A stretch of 64,000 bases of DNA from Oligoflexia bacterium (GTDB lineage Bacteria > Bdellovibrionota_C > UBA2361 > JBGSMV01): contig JAIBBU010000008.1 in the NCBI GenBank assembly GCA_019694515.1, positions 1 through 64,000 of the forward strand, given 5' to 3'. Made by a program: the position numbers and the translations under genes. The notes under the pieces are model-generated. The model saw only the letters and a program-made list of their open reading frames with translations. It made no database searches and was not told the origin of the DNA. Every line of letters begins with the position of its first letter. Within the stretch, counting starts at the first letter, position 1. Positions 31,424-46,332 of the stretch are shown one piece after another.

Positions 31424-31577
31424 TGTCGTTGCGAGCGAAGCGAAGCAATCCCTATCAATTTGCCCGGCAGTGCGTATGCTCCGAGCCAGGGGGTAAGGGG
31501 ATTCTCTCCCCATTAAAGCTGTGTAAAGTAATAAGTGGCATGGAGTTAGGGTTTGCTTCGCTTCGCTCGCAATGACA
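31424..31577. repeat. Inverted repeat, 31-bp arms, of the GCGAGCGAAGCGAAGC family
   Basis: The left arm 31424-31454 and right arm 31547-31577 are inverted copies differing at two of 31 positions. They flank a 92-bp centre. The right arm is also the first copy of the tandem array that follows. Confidence 0.75.
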
Positions 31578-31740
31578 CTGGGCTTCGCTTCGCTCGCAAT
31601 GACACTGGGCTTCGCTTCGCTCGCAATGACGCCGGGCTTCGCTTCGCTCGCAATGACGCCGGGCTTCGCTTCGCTCGCAATGACGCCGGGCTTCGCTTCG
31701 CTCGCAATGACACCGGGCTTCGCTTCGCTCGCAATGACAG
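31550..31740. repeat. Seven-copy tandem array with a 27-bp period
   Basis: The unit reads GGGCTTCGCTTCGCTCGCAA followed by TGACRCY. The AATGAC core recurs at 31571, 31598, 31625, 31652, 31679, 31706 and 31733, exactly 27 bp apart. Differences between units are confined to the last three bases (ACT, GCC, ACC), so the array is young. There are no unique spacers, so it is not a CRISPR. Confidence 0.9.
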
Positions 31741-33827: not shown

Positions 33828-34948
33828 CAACCGCGGTTAACATGCCCAAAGCGACCCGCAAAATAGTGGTGGCGCTCTCCGGTGGAGTGGACTCGTCGGT
33901 GGCAGCGCTGCTGCTAAAGCAGCAAGGCCATGAGCTGATCGGGGTGTCGATGCAGGTTTGGGATTACCGCAATCATGGCGGCTGCAGTACCCGCGCCACC
34001 TGCTGCGCGCCCTCGGATTTTATGGATGCTCGGAAAGTTGCCGCGGTGCTCGATGTGCCGTACTACGTCTTTGATTTTGAAAGCAGCTTTCGAGAAAAGG
34101 TCATCGATAAATTCGTGCGAAGCTATCAGCAGGGCTACACCCCTAATCCATGTGTAGAGTGCAATAATAAGGTGAAGTTCGGGGAGCTGCGGGCCCGGGC
34201 GCACACGCTGGGTTTTGAACAGGTAGCCACCGGACATTATGCCCGGGTGGAGGGTGAGGCTGGACGGAAACGGCTGCTTAGAGGGATCGATGGCAATAAG
34301 GACCAGAGCTATTTTCTTTACGGCACTAAGGCTGCAGAGCTGGGCGCCACTATCTTTCCTGTCGGCGCTCTCACCAAGCCGGAGGTGCGTGAACTAGCTA
34401 AGGCTGCCGGGCTGGTTACGGCGGAGAAGGCTGAAAGCCAGGATATCTGTTTTGTAAGCGGGAGCGCCGGAGAATTCGTCGCCCGCATCGGCGGCCGTCG
34501 GCCGGCAGGTCAAATTACCGATAAGTCGGGGCAGGTCTTGGGTCACCACGACGGTATTCATAACTTTACAATTGGGCAGCGCCGCGGCATCGGTATCGGC
34601 GGTAACGAGGAGCCGATTTACGTGGTTGATATAGATGCGGCCTCAAACCAGGTAATCGTGGGGCCTAAGGAGGAATTGGAACGGGAGGGGTTCAGGGTTG
34701 CCGAAACCAACTGGATTAATCCAGAACTCTTGGAGACCCTCGCGAAGGACGGCGCCGCGGAGCTCTCCGCGATCGCGCAGGTGCGGCATCGGCATGCCGG
34801 AGTGCCGGTAACTTTGAAGATTGACCAAAACGGCGCATGCAGCGCGCGTTTTGTCAGCGAGTGGAGCACTATTTCTCCAGGCCAAGCAGCCGTGTTCTAT
34901 GACACCGCCAACATCGAGGTGCTGGGCGGCGGAACTATTGTGCGGTGA
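33824..34948 (+). CDS. mnmA: tRNA-specific 2-thiouridylase MnmA
   Basis: A 374-residue PP-loop enzyme with ALSGGVDSSVAALLL, GVSMQVWDY, the first catalytic cysteine in NPCVECNNKVKFGEL, ATGHYARVE, QSYFLYG, the second catalytic cysteine in ESQDICFVSG, and GQRRGIGIGGNEEPIYV near the C-terminal beta domain. It makes s2U34 in Lys, Glu and Gln tRNAs with sulfur from the desulfurase encoded just upstream. Its last 14 bp overlap the convergent sat-cysC gene. Confidence 0.96.
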   Translation: MTTAVNMPKATRKIVVALSGGVDSSVAALLLKQQGHELIGVSMQVWDYRNHGGCSTRATCCAPSDFMDARKVAAVLDVPYYVFDFESSFREKVIDKFVRSYQQGYTPNPCVECNNKVKFGELRARAHTLGFEQVATGHYARVEGEAGRKRLLRGIDGNKDQSYFLYGTKAAELGATIFPVGALTKPEVRELAKAAGLVTAEKAESQDICFVSGSAGEFVARIGGRRPAGQITDKSGQVLGHHDGIHNFTIGQRRGIGIGGNEEPIYVVDIDAASNQVIVGPKEELEREGFRVAETNWINPELLETLAKDGAAELSAIAQVRHRHAGVPVTLKIDQNGACSARFVSEWSTISPGQAAVFYDTANIEVLGGGTIVR

Positions 34949-36650
34949 TGAAGCCGCGCTCCCGGAGATACGATACGATCTTATCAACGCCATCTGAAAT
35001 TGAAAGCGTACCCATGTCCAGATGCAGCTCCGGACGCTCCGGCGCCTCGTACGGATCGTCAATGCCGGTGAAGCCGGTGACCTGTCCCTTCCTAGCTTTG
35101 GCGTAAAGACCTTTCGGATCTCGCTCCTCGCAAACCTTTAGCGAGGTGGCAACGAATACTTCGAGGTATTCTCCGACCGGTGAAATGGCATCACGGTTGA
35201 TGCGCCGATCTTCTGCGTACGGGGCGATCAATGAACAGATCACCGTGCCGCCATGCTTGGCAATCTCGGCTGCAATAAAGCCCACTCGACGCACCTGGGT
35301 GGCGCGGTCTTGCTTCGAGAATCCCAGTTCGGCTGTTAGATATTTTCGAACAACGTCGCCGTCCAAAAGGGTAATCTGCCGCCGGTCGATCTCCATCAGC
35401 CGCATCGCCAAGGCGTTTGCGAGGGTCGATTTGCCCGAGGCGGGAAGACCAGTAAAGAAGAGCACCATGCCGCGCGAGGCGTTGGATGGGAAGGCTTCTT
35501 TAAGCTCCTTGATGATCTCAGGATAGCTTAGCCAGCTTGGGATTGGCTTGCTTTCTGCCAAAAGCCCACGCAGCTCTGTTCCGGAGATTTGCAGCGTCTT
35601 TTCTCCAGCGGGGGCCTCATGTTCCTGGAAATACTTGTCGAGCTTCTCCACGTACACCATGTTCTTGAACGGCACCATTTCCACCCCGACCTGCTGCGAG
35701 AGCGAAGCCAAAAGATCCTGTGCCTCATAAGGCTGATAGAAGGGCTTGCCCTGCTTGTCTTTCCCGGGGCCGGCATGATCCCGTCCGACAATAAAGTGCG
35801 ACACGCCGTGATTCTTTCTGATGATCGCATGCCACACCGCTTCACGCGGTCCGCCCATCCGCATCGCCAAAGGCAGGAGGCTTAGAGATGCTGTGCCGGG
35901 CTTGTAGTAGCGCATCACTTCTTTGTAGCAGCGCACTCTAGTGAAATGGTCCACATCCCCCGGCTTGGTCATGCCAACCACCGGATGAATAAGAAGATGT
36001 CCACCGATCTGTTCGGCCGCACGGAAGGTTAGCTCCACATGCGCACGGTGCATCGGATTGCGGGTTTGGAATGCAACCACCTTGCTTGCGCCTTTGGCCT
36101 CAAGTTCAGCCCGGAGCTGTGCCGGAGTCTTACGGAGCTCCACAAAATCATAGTGCCGAGGCAGGCTAATACCGGCGAGTTTACCACCGACGTAGTGGCT
36201 GCCGGACTGCTTCATCAGGTAGAACACCCCGGGATGATCCAGCGAGGTGGTACCGAAGACACGTTGTGCCTCATTGGCCTTTTCCGGTTCCCAAATGTCA
36301 CTGATAGTTAATATCGCCAGTGGGAAACCCTCGTTGTCCCTCAGAACGGCTTCGCTCGCGCCCTTGATTTGCTCCAGCGCCTTGCTATCCAGATCTAATG
36401 TAATCGGCATCGGCCAAACGGTGCCGTCCGGCAGCTGCATGCCTTCCAGTACGGAAAGATATTGCTCTTTTGTCATGAAGCCAGTGAGCGGAGAGAAGCC
36501 GCCGCTCAGAAGCAGCTCCAGGTCGCAGATCTGACGGTGCGAAAGCGAGATGCTGGGAAGCTTCTCGGCTCGAGCCCTGAGGCCCGCTACCTCAGAAGGG
36601 TTGATAAGTTGGATTAATTGGCCGCCATGCGGCTTGATTAGACTGCTCAT
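34935..36650 (-). CDS. sat-cysC: Bifunctional ATP sulfurylase / APS kinase
   Basis: About 571 residues. The N-terminal ATP sulfurylase (~1-385) shows FSPLTGFMTKEQY, VVAFQTRNPMHRAHVELTF, HPVVGMTKPGDVD, MRMGGPREAVWHAIIRKN and IVGRDHAGPG. The C-terminal APS kinase (~395-571) has P-loop FTGLPASGKST, LLDGDVVRKYLTAELGFS and ICSLIAPYAEDRR. Together they make PAPS from sulfate. ATG 36650 is chosen because AAGGAG precedes it; upstream in-frame codons to 36755 lack a site. With no reductases nearby, assimilation or sulfation are both possible. Confidence 0.95.
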   Translation of the reverse strand: MSSLIKPHGGQLIQLINPSEVAGLRARAEKLPSISLSHRQICDLELLLSGGFSPLTGFMTKEQYLSVLEGMQLPDGTVWPMPITLDLDSKALEQIKGASEAVLRDNEGFPLAILTISDIWEPEKANEAQRVFGTTSLDHPGVFYLMKQSGSHYVGGKLAGISLPRHYDFVELRKTPAQLRAELEAKGASKVVAFQTRNPMHRAHVELTFRAAEQIGGHLLIHPVVGMTKPGDVDHFTRVRCYKEVMRYYKPGTASLSLLPLAMRMGGPREAVWHAIIRKNHGVSHFIVGRDHAGPGKDKQGKPFYQPYEAQDLLASLSQQVGVEMVPFKNMVYVEKLDKYFQEHEAPAGEKTLQISGTELRGLLAESKPIPSWLSYPEIIKELKEAFPSNASRGMVLFFTGLPASGKSTLANALAMRLMEIDRRQITLLDGDVVRKYLTAELGFSKQDRATQVRRVGFIAAEIAKHGGTVICSLIAPYAEDRRINRDAISPVGEYLEVFVATSLKVCEERDPKGLYAKARKGQVTGFTGIDDPYEAPERPELHLDMGTLSISDGVDKIVSYLRERGFITAQ

Positions 36651-36781
36651 AATTCTCCTTATAAAGCGACCAATAAAGTACCTGAATTGGCGGATTTTGC
36701 AAAATCGAGCGGGAGAAACAGGCGCTCTTTGAATCACGCCGGTCAATTGTGCCACGGACTATTTCGGGTTAGAGCTGAGGG

Positions 36782-38107
36782 GTGAAAAAGTTCACAGCCT
36801 GGGTCATCTTAGCAGCATTGTTCGGGACGTTAGTGTTCGCGATGGGGCGTCTTTTAAAGAGCTCCGAGCCGAATGTTATTCTGATCGTGCTGGATACCCT
36901 GCGCGCCGATCACCTCGGCACTTACGGTTATGCGCGCGACACTTCACCGCATCTTGATCAATTCGCCGCCGAGAATCTGCAGTTTAATTATGCGATGACA
37001 GCCGCCCCCTGGACTCCGGCTTCCCTGGCCAGCATGTTCAGCGGTGTCTATCCATCGCGGCATGGCATGATGCCCCCGGATGGCCGCGGCCTGGCTAAGC
37101 AGAGCTCGCACCGCCTAGAGAGTCAGGTCGAAACCTTAGCCGAGATTTTTAGTGCGCACGGTTATCTGACGGCCGGTATTACCCCCAACCCCTGGCTCAA
37201 ATCGGAGTTCGGTTATAACCAGGGGTTCGATCGCTATCACTACCGCGATCGGGATCGGGCCGCAGAAATTAATGGGGCGGCCTTCAAAGTTATCTCGGAA
37301 ATTACCAAACAGAAGAAACCGTTCTTCCTCTTCCTTCACTATTTAGACCCGCATGATCCTTATGATGCGCCGGAGCCCTACGGATCGATGTTTAAGGGCA
37401 AACCTCCGGGACTGGATTATGCCCCCGAGATGGAGCAGCTGATAAACGCCTATGACGGCGAGATCCGTTATATGGACGATCGAGTTGGAGAACTGTTCGC
37501 CTTTCTAAAGGAGCAGGGGCTCTACGATAATTCCCGGATCGTGATCTTGGGTGACCACGGCGAGCAGTTCAAGGAGCACGGCAATCTGACCCACGGCTTT
37601 ATGGTGCATACGGAGGAGCTGCACATCCCGCTCCTGGTGAAATCTGGTCAGCCGCACCGCGCGCCGGACTTTACTGTGAGCAGCATCGATATCTTTCCGA
37701 CCCTTTTAGAGATGGCTGGTATCCCCGTGCCGGCGACCGCCCAAGGTCTTTCTCTGCTTAATGATGAAAATTTTAGAGCGCGCGAAGGAGTGCTCTCGGA
37801 GATCAAGCGCAAGTACAACCAAAAGGCTTTCACCAATTTCGAAGGCCGCAAGCTTATCTTGGAATATCCGCTGGAAAGCGGGCTAGTGCAGGAGGATCCT
37901 GCAGGTGGCAAGGTTCTGGGGGTATTCGATCGGCATTCAGACTATGCCGAGCTGCATCCGTCGCTGGATCCCGCGCTAATTGCGCCGCTAAAGCAGGAAT
38001 TGTCGAAGCTATATGCAGATACCGTGAAAGGACGCATTGAGTCGACCGAGGCCCCCGTTTCTGATAAAACCCTGGAGCAGTTAAAATCGCTGGGTTATCT
38101 GCATTGA
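36782..38107 (+). CDS. Membrane-anchored sulfatase-like hydrolase (alkaline phosphatase superfamily), LGYL tail
   Basis: A 441-residue protein with an N-terminal TM anchor (FTAWVILAALFGTLVFAM) and a sulfatase-fold domain. The metal-binding start is LIVLDTLRADHLGTYGY (D38), then APWTPASLASMFSG, LHYLDPHDPYDAP and LGDHGEQFKEHG. The formylglycine motif CxPxR is absent. Thr78 sits at the nucleophile position (ten residues before the Gly that closes the motif), so it is unlikely to be an activated sulfatase. The C-terminus is LEQLKSLGYLH. The start is GTG at 36782. The next gene overlaps it as TTGA. Confidence 0.9.
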   Translation: MKKFTAWVILAALFGTLVFAMGRLLKSSEPNVILIVLDTLRADHLGTYGYARDTSPHLDQFAAENLQFNYAMTAAPWTPASLASMFSGVYPSRHGMMPPDGRGLAKQSSHRLESQVETLAEIFSAHGYLTAGITPNPWLKSEFGYNQGFDRYHYRDRDRAAEINGAAFKVISEITKQKKPFFLFLHYLDPHDPYDAPEPYGSMFKGKPPGLDYAPEMEQLINAYDGEIRYMDDRVGELFAFLKEQGLYDNSRIVILGDHGEQFKEHGNLTHGFMVHTEELHIPLLVKSGQPHRAPDFTVSSIDIFPTLLEMAGIPVPATAQGLSLLNDENFRAREGVLSEIKRKYNQKAFTNFEGRKLILEYPLESGLVQEDPAGGKVLGVFDRHSDYAELHPSLDPALIAPLKQELSKLYADTVKGRIESTEAPVSDKTLEQLKSLGYLH

Positions 38108-40188
38108 GAATCACCTATAGAAACATAGCGTGCTACGGCGCGTTTGTTCTGCTTTTGGCGACACCGCTAAAGGCATTCGCATACATCGGGCCCGGTGCCG
38201 GTTTCGCCTTCCTAGGTTCCGGTTTTGTCTTTATCGCGGCAATCCTGATGGCCTTCGTGACGATTGCCTTTTGGCCCTTTATCTGGCTTTGGCGCCGGGT
38301 GCGCGGCAAGGTTATCAGCAAGCGCGCTCGTACCCGGCGTGTGATCGTAGTTGGTCTGGATGGTCTGGAGCCGACTCTAGCAGAGCGCTTCATGGAGGAG
38401 GGGCGGCTTCCCAACCTTAAGCGCCTCCGTGAGCAGGGCTCGTATTCACGGCTCGGTACCACTCTTCCAGCGCTCTCTCCCGTCGCCTGGTCAACTTTTC
38501 AGACCGGGGTGAATCCAGGCGCGCACAATATCTTTGATTTCCTGACCCGTGATAAGCGCGTGTGCATGCCCTTGCTGGCCTCCACCGAAAGCGTTTCAGG
38601 CGGAAAAACATTCAAGCTGGGACCGATCAAATTTAATTATGGGCACGACAGTGTGCGCATTACCAGAAAATCGGAGCCCTTTTGGAAGATCCTCGGGCGC
38701 TACGGGGTTTTCTCGAATGTGCTGAGGGTTCCGATCTCATACCCTCCAGAAAAATTTGAAGGGAATATTCTCTCGGCGATGTGTACTCCCGATCTGAAGG
38801 GGACCCAGGGGAGCTTTTCGCTTTTCACTACCAACGCCAAGCTTCTGGCCGAACGGAGTACCGGAGGGGAATTTGCGCTGCTTAATCGGCAGGGGTCGCT
38901 GCTGTGCGGAGCAGTTGATGGACCGCCTGATCCTAGCGGGAAGAGCAAATATTTAAGCTGTGCCTTCACGTTAGAACCTCAGCTAGAGGCCGGGTATGCA
39001 GTGTTGCGTACAGGCGGGCTATGCGTGCAGTTAAAGCCGAACGTTTTTTCTGATTGGGTTGAGCTTAAATTCCCCTTGGGCCGGAAGGAGATCCCCGGAA
39101 TCGCGAGATTTTGCCTGCGTGAATTGGGGGCCGAGACCACCCTGTACGTGTCGCCGGTCAATGTCAGTCCGGAGAAGCCCGCACTTCCGATATCGAGTCC
39201 CTTCCTTTTCTCGTCCTGGTTGGCCAAGCGCAACGGTCTATACGGCACCCTCGGGCTGATGGAGGACACCTGGGGGCGAAATGAACACGCGCTTGATGAT
39301 GCCCGGTTTCTGGAGCAGACCTATCTGACTCATGCAGAGCGCGAGAAGATGTTTTTCGATCTGCTGGCCCGCACTAGGGAAGGGGTGGCGGTATGTGTTT
39401 TTGACGCCTCGGACCGAATCCAGCATATGTTCTGGCGGTACCTTGATGATAGACATCCTTCGCCGCGCGAGCAGACTCCGGGGCTTGAACATACCATCCG
39501 CGAAATGTACGAGCGCATGGATCAGCTGGTGGGCAGGGTGATGGCCAAAGTTAATCCTGGTGACGTGCTCTTTGTTTTAAGCGATCACGGGTTTTCCTCA
39601 TTTAGACGGGGTGTGAATTTAAACACCTGGCTGATGCGCGAGGGATATTTAGTGCTCAAAGAGGGCAAAACCGTAGGGGCAGATTATCTGCAGGATGTGG
39701 ACTGGAGCCGCACGAGAGCCTATGCGCTTGGACTTAGCGGGCTATATATAAACAAGCGCGGACGCGAACGGATGGGGATCGTCGAAGAGCAGGCGGCGAC
39801 GGCGCTGAAGCTCGAAATTGCAAAAAAACTGGAGGGGCTGAAGGATCCCAAAGATGGCGCAGTCTCGATTCGCAAAGTACATGACAGCGCGCTTTGCTAC
39901 AAAGGGCTGTATGCCGACGAGGCACCCGATCTGATCGTGGGTTACAACCCGGGGTACCGGGTTTCGTGGGATTCGATTACCGGTACGGTCGAAGCGGAGG
40001 TTTTTAGCGATAACACGAAGGCCTGGAGTGGGGACCATCATGTGGATCCGGAGCTTATTCCTGGTGTGCTTTTCTCGAACCGCAAGCTTACTGCGGAGAG
40101 GCCGCACATCATTGACATGGCCCCCACGATGCTCGATCTTTTTGCGGTCCCAGTGCCCCGCCACATGGAAGGCAAAGTTTTAGTTTAG
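38104..40188 (+). CDS. Membrane-bound type I phosphodiesterase-like protein (alkaline phosphatase superfamily)
   Basis: A 694-residue protein. The N-terminal ~65 residues are hydrophobic (signal-like helix, AYIGPGAGFAFLGSG, long TM), then a basic stretch, then the catalytic domain: VIVVGLDGLEPTLAERF (D86), SPVAWSTFQTGVNPGAHN (S125 at the nucleophile position), FDASDRIQHMFWRY, LSDHGFSSFRRGVNLNTWL and WSGDHHVDPELIPGV. These are the metal and nucleophile regions of the nucleotide pyrophosphatase/iPGM-like branch. It is a clear paralog of the Tat-exported protein at 42,969-44,978. The start is TTG, overlapping the previous stop, so its synthesis probably depends on translation of the sulfatase-like gene. 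Confidence 0.88.
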   Translation: MRITYRNIACYGAFVLLLATPLKAFAYIGPGAGFAFLGSGFVFIAAILMAFVTIAFWPFIWLWRRVRGKVISKRARTRRVIVVGLDGLEPTLAERFMEEGRLPNLKRLREQGSYSRLGTTLPALSPVAWSTFQTGVNPGAHNIFDFLTRDKRVCMPLLASTESVSGGKTFKLGPIKFNYGHDSVRITRKSEPFWKILGRYGVFSNVLRVPISYPPEKFEGNILSAMCTPDLKGTQGSFSLFTTNAKLLAERSTGGEFALLNRQGSLLCGAVDGPPDPSGKSKYLSCAFTLEPQLEAGYAVLRTGGLCVQLKPNVFSDWVELKFPLGRKEIPGIARFCLRELGAETTLYVSPVNVSPEKPALPISSPFLFSSWLAKRNGLYGTLGLMEDTWGRNEHALDDARFLEQTYLTHAEREKMFFDLLARTREGVAVCVFDASDRIQHMFWRYLDDRHPSPREQTPGLEHTIREMYERMDQLVGRVMAKVNPGDVLFVLSDHGFSSFRRGVNLNTWLMREGYLVLKEGKTVGADYLQDVDWSRTRAYALGLSGLYINKRGRERMGIVEEQAATALKLEIAKKLEGLKDPKDGAVSIRKVHDSALCYKGLYADEAPDLIVGYNPGYRVSWDSITGTVEAEVFSDNTKAWSGDHHVDPELIPGVLFSNRKLTAERPHIIDMAPTMLDLFAVPVPRHMEGKVLV

Positions 40189-40213
40189 CCCTCTTTTTTG
40201 GAGGAGAGAGAAC

Positions 40214-40429
40214 ATGTTCAAACCAAAAGTTACCGTCACTAAAGAATTGATGAGCAAGATTACCGAGGCTGCCAAGATTGCAGGATGCTCCAATCTCGAG
40301 GAATTCGTTGAGCGCGCCTTGAACAAGGAGGCTGATCGCGTTTTGAGTCAGGGTCCTAAGCGCGAAATGTCGGCTGCTGAAGTGGAAGAGATCGCGGCTA
40401 AGATGAAAGGCTTGGGATACCTTGAGTAA
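40214..40429 (+). CDS. Small ribbon-helix-helix-like protein with LGYL tail
   Basis: A 71-residue protein with a strong ribosome site (GGAGGAGAG). Residues ~3-45 fit a ribbon-helix-helix pattern: a basic beta strand KPKVTVTKELMSKI, then helix, a turn AGCSNLEEF, and helix VERALNKEADRVL. The tail AAKMKGLGYLE matches the ends of two sulfatase-like proteins of this cluster. It may be a DNA-binding regulator, but the tail suggests a structural link to the enzymes. Its stop overlaps the start of the next gene. Confidence 0.8.
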   Translation: MFKPKVTVTKELMSKITEAAKIAGCSNLEEFVERALNKEADRVLSQGPKREMSAAEVEEIAAKMKGLGYLE

Positions 40430-41252
40430 GGCAATCGACTTAGTGCACAGCGCTGTTGGTTGGATCGTCGATCTGATGATTGCGCCGGTTCAGTCGCTGC
40501 CCGGATGGATCGGCCTGACGTTGGTGTCGGCTATCTGCGGGGTTGTACTTTTGTTTCTTTGGGGCAAGGTTTCGAGTCAGTCCGGTATCAAGCAGGTCAA
40601 GCGGGACATTGCGGCCAGCATGTATGAGGCGGTGCTTTTTCGGCGCGACATTCTGGTCTCGTTGAAGGCACAAGGGCGGCTCTTCGGTTACGCGGCTAAA
40701 TATTTCGGATATGCCGTACCGCCCTTAATTATATTGGCGATTCCGTGTGTGCTGATGCTGTCACAGCTGAACCTGCATTACGGTGTGCGTCCCCTGAAGA
40801 CCGGGGAGTCGGCAGTCTTGACTGTGGATGTTGAGAAGCTTCTCGATCCCAAGGGGGTGAAAGCGGAGCCTGGTGCGGGCTTGGAGCTGTCCCCGCCGGT
40901 GCGCTCGCCGAATCTGAATGAGGTCAGCTGGCGGGTGAGAGTGCTGGATGAAACCAAGCCGGTCACGCTGCGCATATTGGCGGCCAGTGCAAACCCGATC
41001 GATCTAGATCTGGCCGTGCACAATGCTGCACAGAAGGTTTATGCGCATTACTCTAAGTCCTGGCTCGAGTCTTTGATGTATCCAGCAGCGCAGGGGCTGC
41101 GGGCCGATCCCAATCTCAAGGGTATCTCCATAGACTATCCGGCGTCCGATCTGCGTCTTCCAGGGGTCCATCTGCACTGGTTGGTGGTGTTCTTCCTGGT
41201 GTCTTTGGCGAGCGGTTTAATTGCCTCCCGCTGGCTCAAAGTTCAAATTTAG
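40422..41252 (+). CDS. Three-TM membrane protein with beta-rich extracytoplasmic domain, unknown
   Basis: A 276-residue protein with TM1 at ~28-48, a basic helical stretch at ~50-88 (SGIKQVKRDIAASMYEAVLF), TM2 at ~96-114 and LNLHYGVRPLKTGESA after it. A ~120-residue beta-rich domain follows, then TM3 at ~250-270. The TM1-charged helix-TM2 and late-TM3 order recalls Oxa1/EMC3/DUF106-type insertases, but this is topology plus a faint pattern, not a recognised family. The start is TTG at 40422, overlapping the RHH-like gene by 8 bp. Confidence 0.8.
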   Translation: MSKAIDLVHSAVGWIVDLMIAPVQSLPGWIGLTLVSAICGVVLLFLWGKVSSQSGIKQVKRDIAASMYEAVLFRRDILVSLKAQGRLFGYAAKYFGYAVPPLIILAIPCVLMLSQLNLHYGVRPLKTGESAVLTVDVEKLLDPKGVKAEPGAGLELSPPVRSPNLNEVSWRVRVLDETKPVTLRILAASANPIDLDLAVHNAAQKVYAHYSKSWLESLMYPAAQGLRADPNLKGISIDYPASDLRLPGVHLHWLVVFFLVSLASGLIASRWLKVQI

Positions 41253-41354
41253 CCCAGTCCCCGATCTTGATCATACTCTCTCGGCTTGCGTCCTGATTCT
41301 TGGCCGCAAATAATATAGCCCTATATTCAATTTTATTTTGATACGAAGTCTTCC

Positions 41355-41972
41355 ATGAAGAAAATTCTACTGTCCTGCTTGTGCCTGTTTGTTTCCAGCG
41401 CTTGTGCCGGACGCCTGCATCACGCGCAGCCGCAAACCACCCCGCGCGAACCTGCGATGACCAAAGAGCAGATGATGGAAAAGATGATGAAGCTAAGCAC
41501 CCCGGGGCAGGAGCATACCGCGCTGCAGCCGTTGGTAGGGAGCTGGAACGTTGAAGTAAAGAGCTGGGAACAACCTGGTGGGAAGCCGCAGATCTCCAAG
41601 GGGCAGTCAACCAACAAATGGGTGCTCGGAAAACGCTTTGTGCAGGAGCAGTTCAACGGCAAGTTTATGGGGCAGCCGTTTCAGGGAGTCGGTATGTTGG
41701 GATTCGATAATGTGAAGCGCGAATATGTTTGGACCTGGTACGATTCTATGAGCACCGGCTATATGCAGAGCGCAGGCAATTTTACCCCGGGCGCTAAGAC
41801 TCTCGAGATGGAAGGGAAGTTTAGCTGTCCGATGACTGAGGAAGAGATGAGCACTCGGCTCGTTACCAACTTCGTTGATAAGAATCACCACACTTTTGAG
41901 ATGTACATGCGTAACCCCGAAGATGGCCATGAGTTCAAGACCATGGAGATCCATTACAAGCGAAAAGCCTAG
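41355..41972 (+). CDS. DUF1579 family secreted protein
   Basis: A 205-residue protein with a signal peptide (MKKILLSCLCLFVSSACAG; a cysteine at the end might be lipidated, but the lipobox is poor). A DUF1579-like domain follows: LQPLVGSWNVEVKSWEQPGG, STNKWVLGKRFVQEQFNG, GMLGFDNVKREYVWTWYDSM and FEMYMRNPEDGHEFKTMEI. Members form lipocalin-like beta barrels of unknown ligand. It sits in the middle of the phosphatase-superfamily cluster with a terminator after it. Confidence 0.88.
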   Translation: MKKILLSCLCLFVSSACAGRLHHAQPQTTPREPAMTKEQMMEKMMKLSTPGQEHTALQPLVGSWNVEVKSWEQPGGKPQISKGQSTNKWVLGKRFVQEQFNGKFMGQPFQGVGMLGFDNVKREYVWTWYDSMSTGYMQSAGNFTPGAKTLEMEGKFSCPMTEEEMSTRLVTNFVDKNHHTFEMYMRNPEDGHEFKTMEIHYKRKA

Positions 41973-41992
41973 AAAATAGAGCCTTTTCGAGA

Positions 41993-42034
41993 GAGGCGCG
42001 GCTGTTCCAGTTTCGGGGCAGCGCGCCTTTTTCT
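41993..42034 (+). terminator. Rho-independent terminator after the DUF1579 gene
   Basis: GGCGCGGCTG and CAGCGCGCC pair around a short loop with one bulged base, followed by a run of five T. It lies 20 bp after the stop codon. Confidence 0.75.
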
Positions 42035-42107
42035 TGGCGCCGAACGCGGCGCTGGAGCAGCTGCTCGGCTGGTGCAAGATTGTGTTCTGTGATAGCTTTT
42101 CGCTGCG

Positions 42108-42953
42108 ATGAAGAATAATCTTGTTTTTATAACTTTTGACAGCTGCCGTTACGATTCGTTTACTGCGGCCAAGACTCCTAACATCTCCAAGTTAGGTCCA
42201 ACTGATCGGCGTTTTTCTTACGCTAGCTGGACGGTGCCTTCTCATACTGTCTACATGCTGGGCGCTACTCCGCATACCAGTCCGAAAGGCGTCTTTGCCT
42301 CGGAGGTCTACAAGAAGGATTTTATCGCTTGGGGCGCGCGGCTGAATATTGAAGATATCTCTTTTAAGAAGTTCGTGCCGCGGCTATCGCTGCCGGCTTT
42401 TTTGCGGGAGCACGGGTACCGCACCAATGCGCTGGTCTCGATGCCGGTACTGAATCCCACCACAAATTTCAACCAGCACTTTGATCGCTTTCAGCTGATG
42501 AAGGAGCACAATAATTTTGACGCCATTTTAGATGAGCTTGAGTTCGACCAGGCTCAGCCGTCATTTTATCTCTTAAATATCGGGGAGACCCACTATCCCT
42601 ATACGGTGCCGGGAGAAAGCGGCGAACATCTGCCCAGAATTCATGGAGTGCATGGGGTTTTCAAGCACATGGATGATCTGATTTTGCAGGGTAAGACGGC
42701 CAGCGACATAGCGGATGAGGATAAATTTTTCGATATGAGCCAGATGGAGGAATTGCATCAGAAGCAGATTAAGAACGTGAGCTACTTGGATAAGCTTTTT
42801 GAAAAGCTTTACCAAAAAGCGCCGCGGAACACCCATTTCATCGTGACTTCTGATCACGGGGAGCTTTTTGGCGAAGATGATTATTTTGGCCACGGTCCAG
42901 TGATCCATGAGAAGGTCTTCGAGGTGTTTTTTGTCGAAGGCCGAATAGCCTAG
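42108..42953 (+). CDS. Short cytosolic sulfatase-like hydrolase (alkaline phosphatase superfamily)
   Basis: A 281-residue protein without signal peptide or TM helix. Metal and nucleophile regions are LVFITFDSCRYDSF, ASWTVPSHTVYMLG (Thr at the nucleophile position, His where sulfatases have Arg), NIGETHYPYTVPG and VTSDHGELFGEDDYFGHGP. It is shorter than the two other sulfatase-like proteins here and lacks their C-terminal subdomain and the LGYL tail. The substrate is unknown. Confidence 0.85.
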   Translation: MKNNLVFITFDSCRYDSFTAAKTPNISKLGPTDRRFSYASWTVPSHTVYMLGATPHTSPKGVFASEVYKKDFIAWGARLNIEDISFKKFVPRLSLPAFLREHGYRTNALVSMPVLNPTTNFNQHFDRFQLMKEHNNFDAILDELEFDQAQPSFYLLNIGETHYPYTVPGESGEHLPRIHGVHGVFKHMDDLILQGKTASDIADEDKFFDMSQMEELHQKQIKNVSYLDKLFEKLYQKAPRNTHFIVTSDHGELFGEDDYFGHGPVIHEKVFEVFFVEGRIA

Positions 42954-42968
42954 CCCCCGGAGGTCCTA

Positions 42969-44978
42969 ATGTCGAAAAGTATCGGGCGCCGCCAGTTTCT
43001 CAAGCAATCTGCGCTCGGTGTGTCGGCGTTGGCCTGCTCGGGATTGGGAGCTCCTTCGGGCCGCACAGCGCGCGCTCCCTATATCAAGAATTCAAAGATT
43101 GCCAACAAGGTTCTGGTTTTGGGAATGGACGGGCTCGATCCCAACCTTTTGAAACGTTTCATGGCCGAGGGCATCCTTCCGACCTTTTCCAAGTTCGTAC
43201 AGGGCAATCACTTCGGGGAGCTTCAAACCACCATGCCCCCGCAGAGTCCGGTAGCATGGTCAAGCTTTATTAGCGGTACGAATCCCGGCGGGCATGGGAT
43301 CTTCGACTTTATTCACCGTGATCCGGCCAAGTTTATCCCTTATTTGTCGACCTCGCGTTCTTTTCCTTCTAAGCGTTCGATCTCGGTGGGCCGGTGGTCG
43401 GTGCCGCTGGAGAGCGGACATGTTGAGCTGATGCGCAAGGGCCCGGCTTTTTGGCGTTACCTCGAGGATCGGGATATCGACTCCACGGTTTTTCAGATCC
43501 CCGGCAATTTTCCGGTAGTTGAGAGCGCAACGCGCCAAATGAGCGGCATGGGAACTCCTGATCTGCTGGGTGGATATGGAACCTGCTCGCTTTATACCGA
43601 TGCCCCCACAGAAAGCGGCAAACAGTTTGAAGGCGGGGTGATTGAAAAGGTTAAGGGCATCGACCACGTATACAAAGCGACGCTGCGAGGCCCATCGAAT
43701 CCCTTCATGGTTAAGCCGGAAAACGCTGCAATTGAGCTGCAGTTCACCCGTGATCCCTGGGAACCGGTGGTCAAGATTGGTATTCAGGACCGTCAGATTG
43801 TTTTGCGCGCGGGCGAATGGTCAGAGTGGGTGCCGCTTAGCTTCGAATTTGTGCCGCTTTTCTCCACTGTTTCCGGAATGGTGCGCTTCTTCGTGCGCGA
43901 TGTGCATCCGTATTTGCGGATCTACGCTTCGCCGGTAAATGTAGATCCTCAGGATGCGAGTCTGCCGATCTGCAGTCCGAGCGGGTATTCCCGCGACATC
44001 AGCGAAGCAATCGGCAGATTCCATACGCAGGGATTGCCGGCCGATACGAAGGCGCTATCTAACGGCATCCTCTCAGACGATGAATTCCTGCAGCAATCGA
44101 GTCTGATCTTGAACGAAAGCACCCGTGTCTATGAGCATCTGCTGAACGATTTTCGCGAAGGCTTTTTCTTCTTCTATTTCTCCAGCGTTGATCAAAATTG
44201 CCACATGCTGATGCGCAATATGGATCCGACGCACCCGCTCTATAATCCAAATGCGAGTCCCGAAGTGAAGGATGGCATCCGGCATTTTTATCGGGGGATG
44301 GATTACGCTTTGGCCCGGGCGCTCGAGCGGGTCGATAATTATACGACTTTAATGGTGCTCTCGGATCATGGATTTGCGCCATTTATCCGGGAATTCCATC
44401 TTAGTACCTGGTTGGTCGAAAATGGATTTACTACATTGACCTCGCCGCAGCGGCTGGGTGAGGGGGAGTTTTACCGTTACGTCGACTGGTCCAAGTCAAA
44501 AGCATACGCGCTTGGAATCAATGGTATCTACATCAACCAAAAGGGCCGGGAAAAGAACGGCTGGGTCGAGCCCGCCGAAGCTGACTCGATCAAGCAGGAG
44601 ATCATGGCGAAGCTTAGTACGGTTACCGATCCGCTGAACGGCCAGCGCGTGGTCCGAACTCCCTATGACTCACGCAAATTGTATAGCGGGCCGTTCGTTG
44701 ATTTTGCTCCCGATATTCAGGTCGGGTACGAGCGCGGCTACCGCGCCTCTGATGAAGCGATCTTAGGAAAGTTTCCGAAGGGCATTGTTGAGGATCGCAC
44801 CAACAAGTGGTCCTCCGATCACTGCATGGATCCCTCTACTGTGCCGGGGGTGTTCCTGTCCAATAAGCGCTGCCTGAGCGAGAGGCCCGCAATTTGGGAT
44901 ATGGCGCCTTCGATTTTAAAGGCCTTCGGAATCGAAACGCCCGCGGTCATGGACGGGAAGCCGGTGTTGGAGGTGTAG
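42969..44978 (+). CDS. Tat-exported type I phosphodiesterase-like protein (alkaline phosphatase superfamily)
   Basis: A 669-residue protein. The Tat signal is IGRRQFLKQSALGVSALAC, with the twin Arg and FLK. The domain begins VLVLGMDGLDPNLLKRF (D54), then SPVAWSSFISGTNPGGHG (S93 at the nucleophile position), SSVDQNCHMLM, LSDHGFAPFIREFHLSTWL and WSSDHCMDPSTVPGV. It aligns with the membrane-bound protein at 38,104-40,188 along its whole catalytic part. Tat export implies folding with bound cofactor, probably metal, before transport. CGGAGGT precedes the ATG. Confidence 0.9.
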   Translation: MSKSIGRRQFLKQSALGVSALACSGLGAPSGRTARAPYIKNSKIANKVLVLGMDGLDPNLLKRFMAEGILPTFSKFVQGNHFGELQTTMPPQSPVAWSSFISGTNPGGHGIFDFIHRDPAKFIPYLSTSRSFPSKRSISVGRWSVPLESGHVELMRKGPAFWRYLEDRDIDSTVFQIPGNFPVVESATRQMSGMGTPDLLGGYGTCSLYTDAPTESGKQFEGGVIEKVKGIDHVYKATLRGPSNPFMVKPENAAIELQFTRDPWEPVVKIGIQDRQIVLRAGEWSEWVPLSFEFVPLFSTVSGMVRFFVRDVHPYLRIYASPVNVDPQDASLPICSPSGYSRDISEAIGRFHTQGLPADTKALSNGILSDDEFLQQSSLILNESTRVYEHLLNDFREGFFFFYFSSVDQNCHMLMRNMDPTHPLYNPNASPEVKDGIRHFYRGMDYALARALERVDNYTTLMVLSDHGFAPFIREFHLSTWLVENGFTTLTSPQRLGEGEFYRYVDWSKSKAYALGINGIYINQKGREKNGWVEPAEADSIKQEIMAKLSTVTDPLNGQRVVRTPYDSRKLYSGPFVDFAPDIQVGYERGYRASDEAILGKFPKGIVEDRTNKWSSDHCMDPSTVPGVFLSNKRCLSERPAIWDMAPSILKAFGIETPAVMDGKPVLEV

Positions 44979-44994
44979 TCCGTAATTGATTCCG

Positions 44995-46332
44995 ATGAAG
45001 ACCCTAATCGTTTCTCTAATCGCCGCTGCGGCAGCACTTCTACCAACCTATCTCCGGGCCGATACTCGGCCGAACGTTGTGCTGATCATGATCGATACTC
45101 TGCGCGCCGATAAACTTGGCGTATACGGCTGTAAATTCAATACGTCGCCCGAGATTGATGCAATTGCTAAGCAGGGCGCCGTGTTCCGGCGGGCTATATC
45201 GCAGGCCCCCTGGACGCGCGCTTCTATTGCCTCGCTTTTGACCTCACAGTATCCGCGCAGCATCGGAGTGCTAAAGGAACAGTGGGACACCTTGCCTGCG
45301 GATGCCACTACTCTAGCAGAAGCCCTGAAAGGCGCCGGATATACTACGATCGGACTAACTGCAAACCCTCAAATCAATCGAACGTTTAATTTCCACCAGG
45401 GATTCGATCAGTACACCGACAGCGGCGTGATCTTTCGCTGGATGAAAAAGGAAGAGGGCAAGAAGAAATCTTCTAAACATGATCGCGTTGCCAGTGCGGC
45501 CGAGTTGCTGGGTGAGGCGCTCAAGCAGGCCGGCGCTGAGACCAAACGCCCGGTATATCTGCAGCTTCTCCTAATGGACGTGCATGCGCATGACAAAATG
45601 CGGCGCGAAGCAGTTGATCCTGATCTGGCTTCCGATCCGCGGCCCCGCTATTTACAAACGGTGCGAAATACCTCGCGCGAGGTGGGACCCTTTATTGCCA
45701 AGCTTGCGGCGCTGGAGAATTTTAAGAATACCCTTTTTGTCATCACCGCTGATCATGGCGAGGGTTTGGCAGACCATCCCTCCGTAGGGCAAAGCGCGCA
45801 TCATGGGAACCTGCTCTACGAATCGCAGCTGCATGTGCCGCTGATTCTCTTCAATCCGGCCGATAACGGTTTGCGGGGTCGGGTATTTGATGGAGATGTG
45901 CGGCTCTTGGAGCTGGTTCCGACGGTCTTGGGATATGTGGGAGCGGCGGTGCCTGCCGGTGTCGAAGGAAAAGATCTCAGCGCGATCCTGCACGGCATGG
46001 AAAAGATGCCGCTGCTGCCTGCCCCGATCTCCGAAACGCGCTGGCGCGATGTCGAGAAACTGGCAGTGTACTCGCCTGATTACGTCTACATTGAAAACCG
46101 AGATCACTGGAAGGGGGTCAATCCAAAAGAGTTGCAACGACGAGATCGTCCCCAAGATGGACTGAAGACCGACCTGTATGGCGGAGCTGATGATAAAGTT
46201 TCGGCCGAGCTACAGGCAGCGCTAAAAAAATGGGAAGATTCTCATCCCCTTAGAGCTGGCGCGGCACCGGATGAACAACATCAGCCGCTGCCCGAAGAGG
46301 TTGAACAGCTAAAGTCTCTGGGCTACCTCTAG
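44995..46332 (+). CDS. Exported sulfatase-like hydrolase, LGYL tail
   Basis: About 445 residues with a Sec signal peptide (LIVSLIAAAAALLPTYLRAD). Motifs are VVLIMIDTLRADKLGVYGC, APWTRASIASLLTS (Thr at the nucleophile position, no CxPxR), LQLLLMDVHAHDK, ITADHGEGLADHP and AHHGNLLYE. The protein ends EVEQLKSLGYL, nearly identical to the end of the 36,782 gene. ATG 44995 is taken; TTG 44986, nearer GGAGG, is possible. It forms a pair with the Tat-exported phosphodiesterase just upstream, mirroring the pair at 36.8-40.2 kb. Confidence 0.9.
   Translation: MKTLIVSLIAAAAALLPTYLRADTRPNVVLIMIDTLRADKLGVYGCKFNTSPEIDAIAKQGAVFRRAISQAPWTRASIASLLTSQYPRSIGVLKEQWDTLPADATTLAEALKGAGYTTIGLTANPQINRTFNFHQGFDQYTDSGVIFRWMKKEEGKKKSSKHDRVASAAELLGEALKQAGAETKRPVYLQLLLMDVHAHDKMRREAVDPDLASDPRPRYLQTVRNTSREVGPFIAKLAALENFKNTLFVITADHGEGLADHPSVGQSAHHGNLLYESQLHVPLILFNPADNGLRGRVFDGDVRLLELVPTVLGYVGAAVPAGVEGKDLSAILHGMEKMPLLPAPISETRWRDVEKLAVYSPDYVYIENRDHWKGVNPKELQRRDRPQDGLKTDLYGGADDKVSAELQAALKKWEDSHPLRAGAAPDEQHQPLPEEVEQLKSLGYL

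What the first reader, a model, noticed from the sequence alone, without database searches (positions are those of the whole stretch)
36782..46332. Shared C-terminal LKxLGYL tail on otherwise unrelated proteins of one cluster
The sulfatase-like proteins at 36,782 and 44,995 end QLKSLGYLH and QLKSLGYL. The 71-residue RHH-like protein at 40,214 ends KMKGLGYLE. An enzyme and a tiny non-enzyme sharing a terminal tail points to a common docking, sorting or processing signal: a partner that recognises the tail, with the three-TM protein (40,422) a candidate. Seen directly: the tails. Inferred: their function. I recall similar LGY ends on other bacterial sulfatases, so the tail may be wider than this cluster, but I know no described role.
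Basis: partly seen in the sequence, partly recalled or inferred. Interest (0 to 1): 0.72.

Follow-up and report, generated by a model that had tools for sequence, protein, structure and literature searches.

The report
Shared LGY-helix tail on unrelated proteins
Two sulfatase-like enzymes and a tiny DNA-binding-type protein in this gene cluster really do end in the same short helix (L-K-x-L-G-Y-L), and the same ending recurs in several bacterial phyla on a large branch of sulfatase-like enzymes and on a few unrelated partners such as APS kinase, which points to an undescribed stick-on docking element rather than chance.

Summary
The tails are real: the only three among 253 ORFs of 60 aa or more in the window. 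In four genome censuses, 139 of 148 reading frames ending in the tail belong to a few families: PF00884 "sulfatases", PF01663 phosphodiesterases, two RHH subtypes, APS kinase and DUF2061. In an unselected PF00884 sample the LGY element occurs in 58 of 59 proteins with threonine at the nucleophile position and in none of 10 CxPxR formylglycine sulfatases. It is C-terminal or the hinge before a TPR domain. The small RHH protein keeps it invariant across phyla. AlphaFold places it as a short helix on a linker outside the folded core. A docking helix is the best explanation; function is inferred. The RHH tail has a "cytoplasmic" dialect that differs from the exported sulfatases' tails, so one shared partner for all three window proteins is unlikely.

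The parts
36782..38107 (+). sulfA: PF00884 'sulfatase' with Thr at the nucleophile position (APWTPAS), N-terminal TM/signal anchor
   Evidence: Pfam 1.2e-48; alignment T78 invariant; AF2 N-terminal helix 2-24
38057..38104 (+). LGY tail of sulfA (VSDKTLEQLKSLGYLH), exported dialect
   Evidence: sequence; AF2 helix 428-436 after low-confidence linker; last columns conserved in 19 sequences at 18-51% identity
40214..40429 (+). RHH1: 71-aa ribbon-helix-helix-like protein
   Evidence: Pfam TacA1 21.6 bits (cut-off 21), RHH_1 below cut-off; AF2 plus Foldseek to RHH antitoxins/NikR/CopG, weak E-values
40373..40426 (+). LGY tail helix of RHH1 (AAEVEEIAAKMKGLGYLE), cytoplasmic dialect
   Evidence: G66 L67 G68 Y69 invariant in 20 homologues over several phyla; AF2 helix 54-67 after a linker
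40422..41252 (+). three-TM protein, near-obligate neighbour of RHH1, remote EMC3/TMCO1-Ylp1 (Oxa1 superfamily)-like; no LGY tail
   Evidence: profile A4 against PDB 5c8j E=1.1e-6; EMC3_TMCO1 sub-threshold, best hits in several genomes are this gene; co-occurrence with RHH 21/21
44995..46332 (+). sulfB: second PF00884 'sulfatase' with Thr at the nucleophile position (APWTRAS), signal peptide
   Evidence: Pfam 2.6e-41; alignment
46288..46329 (+). LGY tail of sulfB (LPEEVEQLKSLGYL), exported dialect
   Evidence: sequence
38104..40188 (+). PDE1: PF01663 phosphodiesterase-like, YIGPGAG N-terminal TM; operon member, no LGY tail
   Evidence: Pfam 3.6e-32; conserved order in relatives
42108..42953 (+). 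sulfS: small sulfatase-like protein without signal, no LGY tail; conserved operon member
   Evidence: Pfam 7e-8; 61-76% identity in relatives
42969..44978 (+). PDE2: PF01663 protein with Tat-type leader, no LGY tail; conserved operon member
   Evidence: Pfam 1.6e-28
34935..36755 (-). bifunctional ATP sulfurylase/APS kinase, divergent neighbour (26 bp gap); sulfate activation recurs near the RHH1 operon
   Evidence: NF004040 828 bits; sulfate activation genes in 9/26 RHH1 loci against 1/54 controls

Best explanation
The LGY tail is a short amphipathic, helix-capped docking element ([DE]..hydrophobic..L-[KR]-x-L-G-Y-[LIVM]) carried on a flexible leash at the end of the protein. Shown: it is a hallmark of the Thr-nucleophile branch of PF00884, where it is either terminal or the hinge before a TPR domain. 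It also ends cytoplasmic PF01663 phosphodiesterases and is found on non-homologous proteins of the same gene neighbourhoods: two RHH subtypes and an APS kinase. Inferred: the helix binds a partner protein. The hydrophobic face (I/L at -7, L at -3, L, Y, L) packs in a groove, and acidic and basic residues set specificity. Two dialects exist. The cytoplasmic one (hydrophobic -7, basic -4) would let RHH, APS kinase and cytoplasmic AP-superfamily enzymes meet one partner, or each other, in the cytoplasm. The exported one (D-x-E-T) would act outside the membrane, possibly on TPR-type scaffolds, as the fused TPR versions suggest. In this window RHH would be an operon-linked, DNA-binding-type protein whose tail ties it to the cytoplasmic network and, through its partner gene, to the EMC3-like membrane protein. 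The exported sulfatases would use their tails separately.
For: Same C-terminal motif on at least four non-homologous folds, 139 of 148 in-frame tail ends in a few families. The RHH tail is the most conserved part of the protein. The APS kinase tail is a 27-aa extension beyond the solved-structure domain. One cluster (L268) carries tails on RHH2, APS kinase, two PDEs and a signal-less sulfatase-like protein at once. AlphaFold puts the tail on a linker outside the core in both window proteins. Unselected sample: 58/58 LGY-bearing PF00884 proteins have Thr; long-range internal copies sit just before TPR repeats. Dialect difference tracks the presence of an N-terminal TM/signal (17/53 against 38/44, p=5e-8).
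Against: No receptor is identified and no complex was modelled. In the Thr-type sulfatases the element is nearly universal, which is also what an inherited structural helix would show. The dialect split is confounded with phylogeny, and export was judged by hydropathy only. DUF2061 and CysD ends may be native ends rather than added tails (CysD relatives end KKREGYF). Low AlphaFold confidence for a tail is compatible with disorder.
Confidence: 0.5

Rival explanations
1. Cis structural element: the LGY helix is the ordinary last helix (or the hinge to TPR) of the Thr-type AP-superfamily enzyme, packing on its own protein or dimer mate; RHH and APS kinase ended up with look-alike capped helices by convergence.
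For: Near-universal in Thr-type PF00884 (58 of 59); conserved hinge before TPR; L-G-Y is a classic helix C-cap (general knowledge).
Against: Outside the core with falling confidence in AlphaFold; invariant GLGY in RHH and an appended copy on APS kinase; PDE, RHH, RHH2 and CysC share positions -7 and -4.
Confidence: 0.27
2. Docking to the three-TM protein: the membrane protein at 40,422 is the receptor for the tails.
For: RHH and the three-TM gene co-occur in 21 of 21 genomes and overlap in the window; its loop between TM1 and TM2 is conserved and basic.
Against: Genomes without it have many tailed proteins (G100, G111, G149, G156 and the six RHH2 genomes). It could still be the partner of RHH1 alone.
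Confidence: 0.08
3. Turnover or quality-control tag: a hydrophobic C-terminal end recognised by a protease or chaperone.
For: Terminal position, hydrophobic end, present on a regulator-like small protein and on enzymes.
Against: The motif also works as an internal hinge and tolerates 0-2 extra residues; strict G-Y and an upstream acidic/basic pattern are more than known C-terminal degrons need (general knowledge).
Confidence: 0.08
4. Compartment-targeting peptide for bacterial microcompartments.
For: Same anatomy as BMC encapsulation peptides (amphipathic helix on a linker; general knowledge); six genomes with the tailed APS kinase/RHH2 cluster all hold PF00936 genes.
Against: PF00936 absent from the window's own 92%-complete genome and from 8 other tail-bearing genomes; many tailed proteins carry signal sequences.
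Confidence: 0.03
5. Chance or composition: unrelated C-terminal helices that happen to match.
For: The bare DNA pattern is at control level in some genomes.
Against: Family restriction of in-frame ends (139/148), cross-phylum invariance in RHH, Fisher p=4e-14 for the nucleophile association.
Confidence: 0.02

Closest known systems
PF00884 proteins with threonine instead of Cys/Ser (non-formylglycine 'sulfatases'), as noted in the SulfAtlas paper PMC5066984
   Same: Both window sulfatases have Thr at this position; the paper says PF00884 holds Thr proteins that cannot be counted as sulfatases without experiments
   Different: No LGY tail or TPR hinge turned up in the passages read or in the paper searches; here it marks 58 of 59 Thr-type members sampled. 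The paper's own example has a TxNxE motif, not the APWTxxS seen here
Encapsulation peptides of bacterial microcompartments and cargo-loading peptides of encapsulins (works like)
   Same: Short amphipathic helix on a flexible linker shared by non-homologous proteins of one pathway (general knowledge)
   Different: No BMC shell gene in the window's genome; many tailed proteins are exported
RHH antitoxins such as TacA, AtaR, ParD, CopG
   Same: Size, predicted fold and a C-terminal partner-binding-type tail
   Different: The partner gene is a membrane protein, not a recognised toxin; the tail is shared with enzymes
EMC3/TMCO1 and archaeal Ylp1 (DUF106), Oxa1/YidC superfamily
   Same: Three-TM protein aligns over the TM1-hairpin-TM2 region and weakly over the last TM
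   Different: Extra domain of about 130 residues between TM2 and TM3; below Pfam cut-off

Membership tests
Formylglycine sulfatase (SulfAtlas S1) | PF00884 domain | tested here: met
   1.2e-48 and 2.6e-41
Formylglycine sulfatase (SulfAtlas S1) | (C/S)xPxR active-site signature | tested here: not met
   Thr at the nucleophile column, L/I where Arg should be; criterion from PMC5066984
Ribbon-helix-helix protein | strand-helix-helix fold / RHH profile | tested here: met
   TacA1 21.6 bits against cut-off 21, RHH_1 just below its cut-off; two core helices in AF2, Foldseek top hits are RHH proteins but with E above 0.2
Ribbon-helix-helix protein | operator DNA binding as a dimer | not testable with these tools
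   needs EMSA or ChIP
Type II toxin-antitoxin | cognate toxin next to the RHH antitoxin | tested here: inconclusive
   Invariant neighbour is a membrane protein with no toxin family match
EMC3/TMCO1/Oxa1 superfamily (three-TM protein) | profile match and TM1-hairpin-TM2...TM3 layout | tested here: inconclusive
   PDB 5c8j E=1.1e-6; Pfam EMC3_TMCO1 below cut-off
BMC encapsulation peptide | shell proteins in the genome | tested here: not met
   No PF00936 in G000 and 8 other tail-bearing genomes
C-terminal sorting signals (LPXTG, PEP-CTERM type) | C-terminal TM segment with basic end | tested here: not met
   The tail is a short helix of about 10-14 residues ending L-G-Y-L; no hydrophobic segment long enough for a TM (sequence)

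The most novel reading that the evidence does not exclude
The cytoplasmic-dialect LGY helix is a transferable assembly tag that joins PAPS synthesis (APS kinase), AP-superfamily transferase/phosphodiesterase enzymes and an RHH regulator into one complex in polysaccharide or lipid modification clusters, with RHH using the shared tail to sense free enzyme and, in one subtype, working with an EMC3/YidC-like membrane protein.
Probability: 0.2. Interest if true: 0.82.

Novelty: new variant of a known kind. Interest (0 to 1): 0.62.

Why it matters
If right, the tail is a simple marker that separates a large set of mis-annotated 'sulfatases' (Thr-type) from true sulfatases, and a handle for finding what these enzymes work with: pull-downs with a 15-residue peptide could reveal the partner. 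It also links an uncharacterised RHH protein family and an EMC3-like bacterial membrane protein to sulfate activation and AP-superfamily enzymes across several phyla.

Tried and rejected
Bare DNA pattern in the genome: not above control. Literature: no paper combining the LGY motif with sulfatases was found; no paper with five of six cluster terms. PDB: no structure shown covers the tail. Three-TM protein as general receptor: rejected by its absence from tail-rich genomes. Microcompartments: rejected for this genome. Chance: rejected. L322 APS kinase 'tail': judged a native end, because the protein is only 176 aa and the motif closes the ordinary last helix. CysD end in L032: probably native (relatives end KKREGYF). 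DUF2061 tails (4 proteins): kept as uncertain, at least one lies outside any sulfate cluster (L270). A complex model of tail with TPR, RHH or the three-TM protein could not be run (structure jobs limited to two single chains).

Full report
OBSERVATION. The three tails are exactly as described: sulfA 36,782-38,107 ends QLKSLGYLH, sulfB 44,995-46,332 ends QLKSLGYL, and the 71-aa protein 40,214-40,429 ends KMKGLGYLE. Among 253 ORFs of 60 aa or more in the window no other one ends this way. The bare DNA pattern is not enriched in the 3.5-Mb genome (9 matches, 12 in the reversed control), so the test has to ask where in a protein the motif lies and which proteins carry it.

CENSUS OF ENDS. I searched for the motif followed by one residue and a stop codon. 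In 46 genomes of the phylum there were 25 matches (about 20 in the reversed control), but only 14 unique reading frames in the fetched loci truly end there: 10 PF00884 sulfatases and 4 RHH proteins. In 28 genomes behind related loci (41 matches, 10 control) the in-frame ends read were RHH (8), sulfatases (6), PF01663 phosphodiesterases (6) and 3 unassigned. In 80 genomes of the Acidobacteria-type phylum (about 120 matches, 24 control), I read most of the sites: 53 sulfatases, 17 phosphodiesterases, 11 RHH (two subtypes), 3 APS kinases, 4 DUF2061 proteins, 3 unassigned (Pfam confirmation of representatives). In 81 genomes of another phylum: 8 sulfatases, 4 phosphodiesterases, 4 RHH, 1 APS kinase (a native end), 3 unassigned. 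In total 139 of 148 fall in these families.

THE ELEMENT MARKS A BRANCH OF 'SULFATASES'. To avoid selecting on the tail I took PF00884 hits from 12 genomes regardless of their ends. Of about 81 proteins, 35 carry the LGY element at the end, 25 further in and 20 not at all. Most of the internal copies sit between the sulfatase domain and a TPR domain (...DEETxxKLxALGYLG...DPKDKI...TPR); a few are simply 3-16 residues from the end. All 58 LGY-bearing proteins in the alignable set have Thr at the nucleophile column. Of those without it, 10 have the CxPxR signature of formylglycine sulfatases and only 1 has Thr (Fisher p=4e-14). The sample is dominated by a few Acidobacteria genomes. The SulfAtlas paper (PMC5066984) notes that PF00884 contains Thr proteins that cannot be regarded as sulfatases without experimental evidence. 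The window's sulfA and sulfB have Thr at this position (APWTPAS, APWTRAS). The other AP-superfamily genes of the cluster (38,104; 42,108; 42,969) and their orthologues do not have the tail.

THE SMALL PROTEIN. It is RHH-like (Pfam TacA1 just over the cut-off; AlphaFold helices 10-23 and 28-46, then a linker and helix 54-67; Foldseek best matches are RHH antitoxins, NikR and CopG, with weak E-values). Homologues occur in several families of the same order, in Acidobacteria, in Krumholzibacteria and in another phylum. G-L-G-Y is invariant in 20 of them, while the mean column identity is 48%. A second RHH subtype with the same kind of end (KRLKSMGYF, ERLKALGYID) lies directly upstream of an operon PDE460 - APS kinase - PHP phosphoesterase, or next to ATP sulfurylase. 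In L268 five proteins of one cluster carry the tail: RHH2, APS kinase, two phosphodiesterases and a signal-less sulfatase-like protein. There the APS kinase tail is 27 residues beyond the region that aligns with the solved structure 5cb6. This is the strongest sign that the element can be added to unrelated proteins.

STRUCTURE. In the AlphaFold model of sulfA (mean pLDDT 90.5) the core ends with helix 397-415; residues 416-427 are a linker and the tail is a short helix 428-436 with confidence falling to 57. No PDB match shown for the family profile reaches beyond position 428 of 442.

TWO DIALECTS. Phosphodiesterase, APS kinase and both RHH tails have a hydrophobic residue at -7 and mostly a basic one at -4 relative to the L of LGY. 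Unselected PF00884 tails instead have an acidic stretch with T/E at -7. Within AP-superfamily proteins the -7 hydrophobic residue occurs in 38 of 44 proteins without, and 17 of 53 with, an upstream TM-like segment (p=5e-8; within PF00884 alone 16/22 against 10/45, p=1e-4). Caveats: hydropathy only, uncertain start codons, shared ancestry, and the split was noticed before it was tested. In this window RHH has the cytoplasmic dialect and the two exported sulfatases the other, which argues against one receptor for all three.

THE THREE-TM PROTEIN. It accompanies RHH1 in 19 of 19 loci and in 21 of 21 genomes in the Acidobacteria set (one pair 4 kb apart). Its profile matches MJ0480/Ylp1 (PDB 5c8j) at E=1.1e-6 over TM1-hairpin-TM2 and weakly over the last TM. 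Pfam EMC3_TMCO1 is sub-threshold, but in several genomes this gene is the best match. It is therefore probably a remote Oxa1/EMC3-type protein with an extra domain. It cannot be the general receptor of the tail, since G100, G111, G149 and G156 lack both it and RHH yet have many tailed sulfatases.

CONTEXT. Sulfate-activation genes of different types (Sat-CysC, CysN/CysC with CysD, CysD/CysN) lie in 9 of 26 RHH1 loci and in 1 of 54 sulfS loci without RHH. Tailed sulfatases are found in 8 of 26 RHH1 loci and 0 of 54 controls (after removing one RHH artefact). The controls are mostly from other phyla, so these two comparisons are suggestive only.

CONCLUSION. Docking by a capped helix on a leash is the best-supported function (inferred, 0.5). 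A cis structural role is the main rival (0.27). No receptor is known. No published description was found in the searched library.

Noticed in passing
window 40422-41252 and family alignment A4: The unannotated three-TM protein is a remote relative of archaeal Ylp1 and EMC3/TMCO1 (YidC superfamily) with an extra domain between TM2 and TM3; an RHH gene accompanies it in every genome examined.
   Followed up: partly
L268 12,000-17,700; L269 5,400-8,900; L281 6,700-10,200: Operon RHH2 - PDE460 - APS kinase (often tailed) - PHP phosphoesterase near polysaccharide genes (flippase) and several tailed AP-superfamily enzymes; no classical sulfotransferase was recognised in L268, though not every gene there was classified.
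   Followed up: partly
L050-L107 (Nevskiaceae, Cyanobacteria loci): Homologues of the small sulfatase-like protein (42,108) sit beside polyketide synthases and, in some, Sulfotransfer_3 genes; in some of these genomes a PF01663 protein ending QLQMLGYME lies roughly 10-16 kb away.
   Followed up: partly
genomes G087, G103, G117, G130, G143, G155: All six genomes with the RHH2/APS-kinase cluster but no three-TM gene hold BMC shell genes (PF00936) on other contigs; possibly just one lineage.
   Followed up: no
window 31555-31739: Tandem array of 6.9 copies of a 27-bp unit (GCTTCGCTTCGCTCGCAATGACACCGG), REP-like.
   Followed up: no
L275 244-1005: APS kinase with about 65 extra residues after its native end, closing with a second LGY end (KLKKLGYIS).
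   Followed up: no
L154 591-1526: MauE/DoxX membrane protein ending in an acidic linker plus LRKLGYIE, a possible further tailed family.
   Followed up: no
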